DNA from: Frankia sp. R82
GTDB taxonomy: Bacteria > Actinomycetota > Actinomycetes > Frankiales > Frankiaceae
DNA: 37,236 bases
Direction: 5' to 3'
Assembly: GCF_023716925.1 (NCBI RefSeq)
Contig: NZ_JAMQQG010000289.1
Location: 1-37,236 of the forward strand
Below, piece after piece: positions 9,475 through 20,590 of this stretch (within the stretch, counting starts at the first letter, position 1; every line of letters starts with the position of its first letter). A program made the translations under genes and the position numbers. Below the pieces are notes generated by a model. The model was not told where the DNA came from, searched no databases, and was given only the letters and a program-made list of their open reading frames with translations.

Positions 9475-10085
9475 GAGCGTGTGGTTCCACCTGACGGACC
9501 CGACCGGTCGTGGCCGCGGTCCCGCCACGGCCGCCGGGAGCCGGACCCCGAGCCGCCGCTTCCACCGGCCACGGTGGGTTCACTGGAGTCGGCCACCCAG
9601 TCCGCTCGGCTCACGACCTCACCGTCGACGATGCGCGGCTGGTCTCCCGCCGCCGCGCCCTGCCGGGAGCCACCCGGACGGACCCGGTCGATGCCGGCGA
9701 CGACCAGGGAACGGGCCACCTTCGCCTTGCGTACCGCTCCCGCGGGGCTCGCCAGCGCCGCGGAGGCACCGATGAGCACCTGGAAACCGCGTTCGCTCCC
9801 GCGCCAGTGCTCCCGCAGAATCGGCTCTCCGGCGCCGACCACCAGCCGGCGGAACGCGAACGCCACGATCGCCACGTCATCGAGCTGACCGACCACGGGA
9901 ATCATGTTCGTCAGCCGGTTCTTCGGGGACGCGAGATAGGCCAGCGCCGCCGCGGCCTCCACCTTCGCCGAGTGCGGCACCCGCGGATCGGCGACCACCC
10001 GACGCAACATGATGACCAGGTCGGGCAGGAACGTCACGACCTCCCGACCAAAGGTTCGCAGGGCATCCCTGTCTAGCGTGGCCAT
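9471..10085 (-). CDS. DUF1232 (YkvA-like) protein
   Basis: A 204-residue protein whose first half matches DUF1232: a helix-rich block with AALAYLASPKNRLTNMIPVVGQLDDVAIVAFAFRRLV at about 47–83, including the typical proline-glycine turn and the paired Asp. The C-terminal third is Gly/Ser/Arg-rich and probably disordered. ATG at 10085 is preceded by GGAGGTGA ten bases upstream, which settles the start against a longer open frame to 10241. Its stop overlaps the start of the zinc-ribbon gene (GTGA), so the two should be made together. DUF1232 proteins are often membrane-associated, and their role is unknown. Hydrophobic stretches here are short and not clear transmembrane helices. Confidence 0.8.
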   Translation of the reverse strand: MATLDRDALRTFGREVVTFLPDLVIMLRRVVADPRVPHSAKVEAAAALAYLASPKNRLTNMIPVVGQLDDVAIVAFAFRRLVVGAGEPILREHWRGSERGFQVLIGASAALASPAGAVRKAKVARSLVVAGIDRVRPGGSRQGAAAGDQPRIVDGEVVSRADWVADSSEPTVAGGSGGSGSGSRRPWRDRGHDRSGPSGGTTRS

Positions 10086-17788: not shown

Positions 17789-19099
17789 TCAGACGACGGC
17801 GAGGCTCTGGACGCGGGTGATGTCGGCGCCGAGCCCGCGCAGGTCCTCGACGAAATGGGCGTAGCCGCGGTCGATGTGATGCACCTCGGTCACCTCGGTG
17901 ATCCCATCGGCGACCAGACCCGCGAGCACCAGGGCCGCCCCGGCCCGGACGTCGGAGGACATGACCCGGGTACCGGTCAGCCGCGTCCCGGGGCGCACGA
18001 CCACATGATGACCGTCGGTGCGCAGGTCGGCGCCCAGCTTGTGCAGCTCGCGGCAGAACACGAACCGGCTGTCGAACACGTTCTCGGTGATCAGCGAGGT
18101 CCCGGAACTGATCGCCTCCAGTGCGATCACCTGCGGCAGCAGATCCGTCGGGAACCCCGGATACGGCAGCGTCACGACGTCGATCGAGCGCGGCTGCTCC
18201 CGTCCCACCACCCGGAACCCGTCCGCCCGCACGTCGACCTGCGCACCGGCCTCGACCAGCTTCTCCAGCACGATCGCGAGATGGCCGGCCCGGCCGCCCC
18301 GGACCAGCACATCCCCGCCGGTCATCAACGCGCCGACTGCGTACGTCCCGGCGACGATCCGGTCGGGCACCGTCTCGTGCTCGACCGCGGCCAGCTCGTC
18401 CACACCGTCGACCACCAGGGTGGACGAGCCCGCCCCGTCGATGCGCGCCCCCATCGCCGTCAGCATCGCGCACAGGTCGGCGATCTCCGGTTCCCGGGCG
18501 GCGTTGTCGATGACGGTCGTGCCCTTGGCCAGCACCGCCGCCATCAGCAGGTTCTCGGTGGCCCCGACGCTGGGGAAGTCCAGCCAGATCGTGGCACCCT
18601 GCAACCGCCCGTCGCTGCGCGCGACCAACACCCCGTCCTCCATGTCGACGACCGCGCCCAGCCGGGTCAGCCCGTTGACATGGATGTCCAGCGCCCGCGA
18701 CCCGATCGCGTCGCCGCCGGGCAACGCCACCCGCGCCTCACCGCGGCGCGCGACCAGCGGCCCGAGCACCGCGACCGACGCCCGGATCCGCCGCACGAGA
18801 TCCCCGTCGGCCGCGCCCTGGGCCTCGTCCGGCATGTCGATCCACAGCCGGCCACCGGCCGTACCCGCTCCTCCCTGGCCTGGCACCCGCTCCTGCGGCG
18901 CGCGCGTGACCGTGGCACCGAGGCCGGTGAGCACGTCCGCCATCACCGTCACGTCGAGGATGTCGGGGACCGCGGTCAGGGTGGTGCGACCGGTGGCCAG
19001 CAGGCTCGCGGCCATCAGCTTCAACACAGAGTTCTTCGCACCCGGAACGGCGACCTCACCGATCAGCCGGGTGCCGCCAGTCACCACGAAGCGTTCCAC
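17789..19099 (-). CDS. murA: UDP-GlcNAc 1-carboxyvinyltransferase MurA (Asp-type active site)
   Basis: A 436-residue EPSP-synthase-like enzyme that adds enolpyruvate to UDP-N-acetylglucosamine, the first committed step of peptidoglycan synthesis, in the cytoplasm. The N-terminus has [17 protein letters not shown] with Lys22, and the family's inside-out barrel repeats follow. The mobile loop reads [13 protein letters not shown]: Asp130 replaces the Cys that fosfomycin attacks in most bacteria, as in mycobacterial MurA, so intrinsic fosfomycin resistance is expected. A Gly-rich insertion ([10 protein letters not shown], about 74–83) is unusual. The start is GTG 19099. It lies 79 bases downstream of the Nudix gene and converges with the small membrane protein. 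One murA this close to the ATPase operon matches mycobacterial order. Confidence 0.96.
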
Positions 19100-19178: not shown

Positions 19179-19589
19179 TTATTCCGTTGCGCCCATGTTG
19201 AGCACGGACACCCCGTCATGCATCCGCACGAAGGCCTCACCCTGACCCGCCAGGGCGTCCCTCACCCGCACCGCGAACGCCGGAACGAACCGCGCCGCCA
19301 CCTCGTCCGACGAGAGCCAGGCGACCTCGGCCGACTCCTCGGTGCTGGCTGCGATCGTGTCGCCCACGAGCTCGCAGCGGAAGACCATGGCCACCACCGC
19401 TCGCGGCAGGTTCAGATACACGCCGGTGAGCCGAACGGGCTGGACGAGCGCGCCGGTCTCCTCGACAATTTCCCGCCGCACCCCGTCGTGGATCGACTCG
19501 TCCCGTTCGAGCACCCCACCCGGGATCTGCCACTCCCCGGTATCCCGCCGCCTGATCCCAAGAATTTTCCCGTCCGCGCGGACCACCAC
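19179..19589 (-). CDS. Nudix hydrolase with a shortened N-terminus
   Basis: A 136-residue Nudix protein that would cleave a nucleoside diphosphate linked to another group; the substrate cannot be told. The Nudix box is perfect: Gly25, five residues, Glu31, seven residues, then Arg39-Glu40-Ile-Val-Glu43-Glu44-Thr-Gly46. The body matches an actinobacterial family with VYLNLPRAVVAMVFRCEL and WLSSDEVAARFVPAFAVRV. Relatives usually have 10–15 residues before the first strand (pattern SVAGVVVR). Here GTG 19589 falls within that strand; the codons just upstream would still read PASVAG, but an in-frame TAG closes the frame a few codons further up and no start lies between. It stands head-to-head with a truncated phosphatase gene, so the N-terminus may have been lost in the same event. 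Confidence 0.82.
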   Translation of the reverse strand: MVVRADGKILGIRRRDTGEWQIPGGVLERDESIHDGVRREIVEETGALVQPVRLTGVYLNLPRAVVAMVFRCELVGDTIAASTEESAEVAWLSSDEVAARFVPAFAVRVRDALAGQGEAFVRMHDGVSVLNMGATE

Positions 19590-19614
19590 TCCCGCTACGC
19601 TCGCAGGTCCCGGG

Positions 19615-20007
19615 GTCGTCTATGCGCAGGCACAGGCCACCAACCGGGAGCGCCGGAGCCGGCGCAACACCCCGGCCGGACTGTGGGTACTCGCGGACGT
19701 CCCAGAAGCGGCCGAGCATGCGTTCGTCACCACGGTTCCGGTCACAGCAGGGATGGAGGTAGTGGTGATGTCCGATGGTTATGCCCGAGCACTGCATCCC
19801 TTCGGCCTGGTGACCGATGCCGACGCGCTGCTCGACGAGATCATCGCCGGGCGGGCCGAGACACTGCTTGACCGGCTGCGTGCCGCGGAGCGGGCCGATC
19901 CGGCTCGGGTGCGCTTTCCCCGGTTCAGCGTCAGCGACGACGCCACGATGCTCCATGCACGGCTGCGGACCGAGGCGGCCCGGGCGCCGGATGGGGTGGA
20001 TTCCTAG
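19615..20007 (+). pseudogene. C-terminal remnant of a PP2C-like phosphatase
   Basis: From about 19615 the frame reads AQATNRERRSRRNTPAGLW, DVPEAAEHAF, VVVMSDGYARALHPFGLVTDADALLDEI, LRAAERADP and ends SVSDDATMLHARL. This is the C-terminal half of an actinobacterial PP2C-like protein family (recalled pattern: RNTPGGFW, AAEHAL, LSDGxxRLVDRFGL, AERADP, DDAT). The N-terminal half with the first metal-binding Asp motifs is missing: upstream sequence is the Nudix gene on the other strand. No good start lies at the 5' end; ATG 19753 or 19768 (GGAGG eight bases before) could give an 85- or 80-residue fragment. Most likely a dead remnant; a small expressed protein cannot be excluded. It ends 10 bases before the adenosyltransferase start. 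Confidence 0.65.
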
Positions 20008-20017
20008 ACTGGGGGGC

Positions 20018-20590
20018 ATGGCGGTACACCTCACCCGGATCTACACCCGCACCGGTGACGACGGAACGACCGCGCTCGGGGACATGTCCCGGGTGGCGAA
20101 GACGGATCCGCGGCTGGCCGCCTACGCCGACGTCGACGAGACGAACGCGGCGATCGGCGTGGCGCTCGCGCTCGGCGGACTGGCCGACGAGGTGCGTGCC
20201 GTTCTGGGCCAGGTGCAGAACGACCTGTTCGACGTCGGCGCCGACCTGTGCACCCCGGTCGTGGCGGACCCGCAGTATCCGCCGTTGCGGATCACCGAGA
20301 GCTACGTCGAGCGGCTGGAGGAGGCGTGCGACCGGTTCAACGCCGACCTGCCGAAGCTTGCCTCGTTCATCCTGCCGGGCGGGACGGCGGGGGCGGCCCT
20401 GCTGCACACGGCCCGCACGGTCGCCCGGCGGGCCGAACGGTCGGTCTGGGTGCTGCTCGACGCCGACCCGGAGCACACCGGCCCCCTGCCGGCCCGCTAC
20501 CTCAACCGGCTCTCGGACCTGTTGTTCATCCTCGCCCGGGTGGCGAACCCCGGCGGCGACGTCCTGTGGCAGCCCGCCGCCCACGCCTGA
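20018..20590 (+). CDS. Cob(I)alamin adenosyltransferase, PduO type
   Basis: A 190-residue PduO-type adenosyltransferase, which transfers the adenosyl group of ATP to cob(I)alamin to make coenzyme B12 and can hand it to mutases. Visible are the ATP-binding start TRTGDDGTTALGDMSRVAK, AAYADVDETNAAIG, FILPGG, the ARTVARRAERSVW helix and LNRLSDLLFILAR near the end, all typical. ATG 20018 fits the family and follows a GGGGGG run. It would serve the ethylmalonyl-CoA mutase in this window. It is the last plus-strand gene before a hairpin that separates it from the convergent ATPase operon. Confidence 0.95.
   Translation: MAVHLTRIYTRTGDDGTTALGDMSRVAKTDPRLAAYADVDETNAAIGVALALGGLADEVRAVLGQVQNDLFDVGADLCTPVVADPQYPPLRITESYVERLEEACDRFNADLPKLASFILPGGTAGAALLHTARTVARRAERSVWVLLDADPEHTGPLPARYLNRLSDLLFILARVANPGGDVLWQPAAHA

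What the first reader, a model, noticed from the sequence alone, without database searches (positions are those of the whole stretch)
19179..20007. Deletion scar joining a clipped Nudix gene head-to-head with a decapitated phosphatase
The Nudix gene begins within its first strand and lacks the usual 10–15 lead residues, while 25 bases away on the other strand the reading frame enters a PP2C-like protein in its middle. Both are cut at the same point, so a single deletion or rearrangement likely removed the Nudix 5' end and promoter plus the phosphatase N-terminal half. The Nudix gene may now use a weak or leaderless start.
Basis: partly seen in the sequence, partly recalled or inferred. Interest (0 to 1): 0.55.

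Follow-up and report, generated by a model that had tools for sequence, protein, structure and literature searches.

The report
Deletion scar between clipped Frankia genes
In this Frankia genome a loss of about 1.5 kilobases removed the start of one gene, a whole second gene and half of a third; several related species have lost different pieces of the same small gene group, so the scar is ordinary but the repeated loss is worth noting.

Summary
The window is Frankia. In relatives the stretch between murA and the cobalamin adenosyltransferase gene holds Nudix (minus strand) and, facing away from it, a helical, TPR-like gene (tentative) overlapping a PP2C phosphatase gene (plus strand). Against the nearest relative (Ca. 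Frankia nodulisporulans AgTrS) the window lacks 1,502 bp with sharp ends: homology stops at 19602 and resumes at 19609. Lost are the Nudix start codon, its first four codons and a conserved promoter-like element, the whole middle gene, and about 152 codons of the phosphatase. The missing parts were not found elsewhere in the assembly. Corrections: Nudix lost about 4 residues, not 10-15; the back-to-back layout is ancestral; a whole gene went too. The remnants show no frameshift or early stop and no excess of replacement changes over the sister branch, so the event is probably recent. It is not isolated: 8 of 13 Frankia genomes carry large deletions here (8 mapped junctions in 7 genomes, all with different ends), while four neighbouring genes are open in 39 of 40 cases against 17 of 30 for the group. 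Ordinary decay of a repeatedly lost module. Misassembly is unlikely but not excluded.

The parts
17789..19099 (-). murA (UDP-GlcNAc 1-carboxyvinyltransferase), conserved left flank
   Evidence: Pfam EPSP_synthase 8e-95; present in relatives
19179..19619 (-). Nudix gene without its start codon; homologous to G006 Nudix codons 5-148; first usable start GTG 19589-19587
19449..19517 (-). Nudix box GX5EX7REUXEEXGU-like, present (A in the last place, as in orthologues G009 and G010)
   Evidence: pattern match; alignment; motif recalled
19602..19609 (.). deletion junction: 1,502 bp of the G006 arrangement missing, 6 bp between the two homologous ends
   Evidence: one copy in the genome
19609..20007 (+). 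3' remnant of the PP2C-like phosphatase gene (from codon ~153); keeps SDG (19771) and DDAT (19936) motifs, lacks the upstream DGA and GDS motifs; no start of its own
20018..20590 (+). PduO-type cob(I)alamin adenosyltransferase, conserved right flank
   Evidence: TIGR00636 4e-52, Pfam Cob_adeno_trans 2e-61

Best explanation
One deletion of about 1.5 kb joined the inside of a Nudix gene to the middle of a PP2C phosphatase gene. It removed the divergent promoter region, the whole TPR-like gene between them and the N-terminal half of the phosphatase (shown by comparison). The phosphatase remnant is a pseudogene (inferred from loss of N-terminal motifs and of any start). The Nudix coding region is nearly complete but has lost its start codon and promoter-like element, so it is probably silent or poorly expressed from an internal GTG (inferred). 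The event is probably recent (inferred from open frames and ordinary substitution ratios) and is one of several independent losses of this three-gene group in Frankia, which points to a dispensable or only conditionally useful function.
For: Gap murA-pduO is 918 bp in the window against 2,419 (G006) and 2,421 (G010). Homology breaks sharply at 19602/19609. The lost gene and the phosphatase N-terminus have no significant match in the genome (best E 0.34 and 0.16). The junction query is found once in the assembly. G006 and G004, the nearest on the tree (95/94 and 97/100), each keep parts the window lost. Eight junctions mapped in 7 of 13 genomes (the window's included), all with different ends, plus G007, where the middle gene and most of pp2c are not found. 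Neighbouring genes open in 39 of 40 cases against 17 of 30 for the group in the same 10 relatives, one measure for both. Changes on the window branch in the phosphatase remnant: 17-23 silent, 6-7 replacement, by outgroup.
Against: Draft assembly of 370 contigs, no reads, no second strain. The nearest relative is only 89% identical over murA+pduO, so the ends cannot be placed to the base and 6 bp are unassigned. The references are imperfect: G006's phosphatase has a segment in a shifted frame and G010's middle gene has a stop at codon 329 of 350 aligned; only G009 reads through all three genes in full without such a mark.
Confidence: 0.93

Rival explanations
1. Assembly artefact: two flanks were wrongly joined and the 1.5 kb was dropped.
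For: Draft with 370 contigs at 95% completeness; no reads to check.
Against: Flanks are in the expected order and orientation, the junction query is found once, the missing genes match nothing else in the assembly, and no repeat is visible within 25 bases of the ends. Two genomes held as one contig (G002, G005) show the same kind of loss.
Confidence: 0.04
2. The short forms are remodelled working genes: a Nudix hydrolase started at the internal GTG and a short phosphatase-derived protein.
For: Both frames are open; the Nudix box is present; replacement changes are not raised over the sister branch.
Against: The phosphatase part has no start of its own and lacks the N-terminal motifs. The GTG start has only GGGA directly before it, badly spaced for a ribosome site (read), and would cut into the first strand. 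No sigma-70-like promoter was found in 19400-20100 (a weak test for actinobacteria). The other 12 Frankia genomes do not have this short form.
Confidence: 0.08
3. The relatives gained DNA instead: the short form is ancestral and the middle gene plus phosphatase half were inserted.
For: Three genomes of other genera of the family have a nearly empty murA-pduO gap (158-423 bp in G014, G019, G027).
Against: The window holds the second half of a phosphatase that is full length in genomes of three genera; an insertion would have to complete two genes on opposite sides at once.
Confidence: 0.01

Closest known systems
Ordinary pseudogene-forming deletions (compare genome reduction in host-bound Frankia)
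   Same: Short-junction deletion of non-core genes between conserved genes; genome reduction is proposed for spore-positive Alnus Frankia (PMC9956245, passages seen).
   Different: Losses at this locus also occur in large Frankia genomes such as G005 (7,497,934 bp, the size listed there for F. alni ACN14a), so they do not follow genome reduction alone.
Nudix hydrolases of actinomycete integrative elements (Pif of pSAM2)
   Same: Same superfamily. Nudix relatives in Virgisporangium (57%) and Streptacidiphilus (49%) have a GntR/UTRA regulator gene and a DUF2637 gene within the 4 kb fetched, and an FtsK-type gene in the second. In Virgisporangium a PP2C-like gene overlaps the Nudix start by 4 bp.
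   Different: The Frankia locus lies between core genes and no transfer or integrase gene was seen in the parts examined. Pif itself was not compared; its role in conjugal immunity is from passages of PMC3218068.
Bacterial PP2C-type phosphatases
   Same: Full-length orthologues of G009, G010 and G011 pass the Pfam PP2C_2 cut-off narrowly (24.4-25.6 bits against 24).
   Different: The window remnant lacks the N-terminal half and the motifs found there; G006's own copy does not pass the cut-off (13.7 bits).

Membership tests
Deletion scar | Relatives keep a longer arrangement of which the window lacks one continuous block | tested here: met
Deletion scar | Missing block absent from the rest of the genome | tested here: met
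   (95% complete draft)
Deletion scar | Junction present in sequencing reads | not testable with these tools
   no reads held
Nudix hydrolase | NUDIX domain and Nudix box | tested here: met
   PF00293 6e-18; box at 19449-19517
Nudix hydrolase | Own start codon and complete first strand | tested here: not met
PP2C phosphatase (working) | N-terminal DGA and central GDS motifs | tested here: not met
   absent in the remnant; present in G009 and G010; their metal-site role is recalled
PP2C phosphatase (origin of the remnant) | Orthology to a full-length PP2C-type protein at the same place | tested here: met
Pif-like conjugal immunity protein | Lies in an integrative conjugative element | tested here: not met
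   locus lies between murA and pduO, next to an ATP synthase gene
TPR protein (lost middle gene) | TPR fold or profile match | tested here: inconclusive
   no Pfam TPR match; all-helical single-sequence model, mean pLDDT 69; best folds include TPR proteins but at E 0.16 or worse

The most novel reading that the evidence does not exclude
The Nudix / TPR-like / PP2C group is an undescribed three-part signalling or conflict module that works from one shared divergent promoter of about 35 bp, is worth having only under particular conditions, and is therefore removed again and again by independent deletions in Frankia; the window caught one removal shortly after it happened.
Probability: 0.3. Interest if true: 0.5.

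Novelty: new member of a known kind. Interest (0 to 1): 0.27.

Why it matters
The scar itself is ordinary gene loss. Taken together, many different lesions in one small gene group beside stable neighbours, in 13 species of one genus, form a natural experiment on when a Nudix/phosphatase module becomes dispensable in a plant symbiont. It also warns that automatic annotation may report a working Nudix hydrolase here although the gene has lost its start and promoter-like element.

Tried and rejected
Translocation of the missing piece: no significant match elsewhere in the genome. Toxin-antitoxin-like dependence between Nudix and the other two genes: not supported, since G001 keeps Nudix without the others, and G003 and G012 keep the others with a broken Nudix. 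Known defence system: one weak Nudix match to a candidate model (PDC-S07, E 1e-9), none for the other two. Repeat-mediated deletion: no repeat visible near the window junction; overlaps at other junctions are short or imperfect. The conserved intergenic stretch as a genome-wide operator: the pattern used, with one mismatch, gave 1 hit in 13 genomes, not at this locus, against 3 hits of the backward control; it misses the known copies, so it was too strict and says nothing about a regulon. Nudix on plasmids: 91 records matched, the five best 49-56% identical; three neighbourhoods opened show no annotated phosphatase beside it, in a gene table that is incomplete. PP2C relatives in 296 phylum genomes: 13 with a match, the window's own included; none of the 14 other loci gave a Nudix or middle-gene match within the fetched flanks of up to about 1.5 kb. 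Structure of the middle protein: single-sequence model too weak to name its fold. Literature: Frankia+Nudix+pseudogene gave 0 papers and Frankia+Nudix+PP2C gave 1, which does not describe this locus in the passages seen.

Errors of mine on the way: one search read pduO one base out of frame (redone); one search printed the phosphatase remnant in a wrong frame (redone); one search did not test for stops, so the control was recounted. A first, cruder count (no stop anywhere in the match) gave 30 of 40 for the neighbours; the 9 matches with a stop have it within their first 21 codons, before the likely true start, and by longest open stretch of at least 80% of the query the count is 39 of 40.

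Full report
What was checked. The window lies in contig C331 of a 370-contig, 6.9-Mb draft. Its nearest relative by murA+pduO is G006 (G000+G006 supported 95/94, with G004 97/100). G006 contig C16 has the same number and length (37,295) as NZ_CADCWS010000016.1, Candidatus Frankia nodulisporulans AgTrS, so the window is Frankia (inferred).

Observation. The Nudix frame is open from a TAG at 19622-19620 to 19179 on the minus strand; the first usable start is GTG 19589-19587. The phosphatase-like frame on the plus strand ends at 20007 and matches the G006 orthologue only from codon 153. The estimate of 10-15 missing Nudix residues is not: the orthologues of G001, G003, G006, G009 and G010 start MHSVSVAGV, so four codons are lost.

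The fuller arrangement. In G006 and G010 the order is murA (minus), Nudix (minus), 35 bp, a gene of about 348 codons (plus) overlapping a PP2C-type gene of 274-275 codons (plus), then pduO (plus); G009 is the same up to the phosphatase, and its pduO was not among the sequence fetched. The PP2C orthologues of G009, G010 and G011 pass Pfam's PP2C_2 cut-off narrowly; that of G006 does not. G010's middle gene has a stop at codon 329 of 350 aligned. The middle protein has no Pfam match above cut-off; a single-sequence model is all helical with mean pLDDT 69 and its best folds include TPR proteins at non-significant E-values, so 'TPR-like' is tentative, and the membrane part is my reading of its hydrophobic C-terminal third.

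The deletion. BLASTN of G006 against the window gives two blocks at this place: G006 2269 pairs with window 19602 and G006 3772 with window 19609, so 1,502 bp are missing with 6 bp between. The murA-pduO gap is 918 bp against 2,419 in G006 and 2,421 in G010. The middle protein and the phosphatase N-terminus have no significant match in the rest of the genome (best E 0.34 and 0.16), and a 141-base junction query is found once.

Age. Window against G006, dN/dS is 0.42 for Nudix, 0.11 for the phosphatase remnant, 0.17 for murA and 0.11 for pduO; dS of the remnant (0.73) is higher than that of murA (0.39) or pduO (0.26), which I cannot explain. Changes assigned to the window branch, by outgroup, are 17-23 silent and 6-7 replacement in the remnant, and 7-14 silent and 9-16 replacement in Nudix; on the G006 branch they are 15-20 and 9-10, and 12-14 and 19-20. 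Neither window remnant has a frameshift or early stop. A recent deletion is the simplest reading; continued selection on a remnant cannot be excluded on one branch.

Not an isolated case. Across the 13 Frankia genomes that the genus search returned: large deletions in G000, G001, G002, G004, G005, G007, G011 and G012 (8 of 13); a Nudix frameshift in G003 and G008, which could be sequencing error in drafts; a shifted segment in the phosphatase of G006; an early stop near the end of the middle gene of G010; G009 alone without any such mark. Eight junctions could be mapped, all with different ends: G000, G001, G002, G004, G005, two in G011, and G012. G001 and G009 are sisters (100/100), 96% identical over the aligned stretch, yet only G001 lost the two plus-strand genes. 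G005 lost nearly everything and may hide earlier events.

Control. Four genes on the murA side (HD-domain, mutB-like, two unnamed) were looked for in 10 relatives (G001-G006, G009-G012; the two others, G007 and G008, were left out because the contig ends near murA or before it). Counting a gene as kept if one match has an open stretch of at least 80% of the query, the neighbours are kept in 39 of 40 cases (mutB not found in G010) and the three group genes in 17 of 30 (Nudix 4, middle gene 5, PP2C 8, of 10 each). Fisher p is 3e-5, which treats related genomes and genes as independent and so overstates the strength; by genome it is 7 of 10 against 1 of 10, p 0.02. The neighbours were not matched for function, and mutB at least may be under stronger selection.

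The lost promoter region. In 12 of the 17 family rows the script could place both starts, 34-37 bp apart; in the other five the middle gene was missing or its start was misplaced by extrapolation. A stretch like GGAACGTACC-N-ATTTG sits 4 bp from the Nudix ATG in most of the 17 rows; G013 lacks it and G007 has it only weakly. On the minus strand it offers a TANNNT hexamer ending 6 bp before the ATG, as in leaderless actinobacterial genes (recalled). The window has lost it.

Wider links. A Virgisporangium relative of this Nudix (57%) follows a PP2C-like gene with a 4-bp overlap (PP2C by tblastn E 7e-11, but no Pfam match). In G020, of the same family, a weak PP2C-like piece (26% identical, E 2e-5) lies next to the Nudix. 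A Streptacidiphilus relative (49%) lies near GntR/UTRA, FtsK and DUF2637 genes; its PP2C match (E 0.004) falls on the other strand of the regulator gene and is probably chance. So the Nudix-PP2C pairing may exist outside Frankia, and the mobile-element setting suggests, no more, a link with Pif-type immunity proteins (PMC3218068, passages seen). Against a general pairing: 14 PP2C loci from other genomes of the phylum gave no such Nudix within the fetched flanks.

Verdict. Its main added value is that it belongs to a locus that Frankia species have lost repeatedly.

Noticed in passing
L101:3324-6466 (G011): About 3.1 kb lies between the phosphatase gene and pduO, with a LysR-type regulator gene and a fragment matching DUF4158 (DUF4158 as a Tn3 transposase part is recalled).
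   Followed up: partly
L066:3316-4143 (G006): The AgTrS phosphatase carries a segment (about residues 98-130) out of frame with its orthologues, the usual sequence being readable in another frame; sequencing error or early decay.
   Followed up: partly
L066:2281-2315 and the same place in relatives: Divergent start codons 34-37 bp apart with a conserved stretch next to the Nudix ATG, perhaps a shared or leaderless promoter.
   Followed up: partly
L087:3099-4447: Virgisporangium: PP2C-like gene and Nudix gene overlap by 4 bp downstream of a GntR/UTRA regulator gene, with a DUF2637 gene nearby.
   Followed up: partly
window 19609-19965 against L066:3772-4128: Silent divergence in the phosphatase remnant (dS 0.73) is about twice that of murA and nearly three times that of pduO between the same two genomes.
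   Followed up: no
window 9482-9578: ARAGORN reports a tRNA of unknown type with a four-base anticodon, most likely a false call.
   Followed up: no
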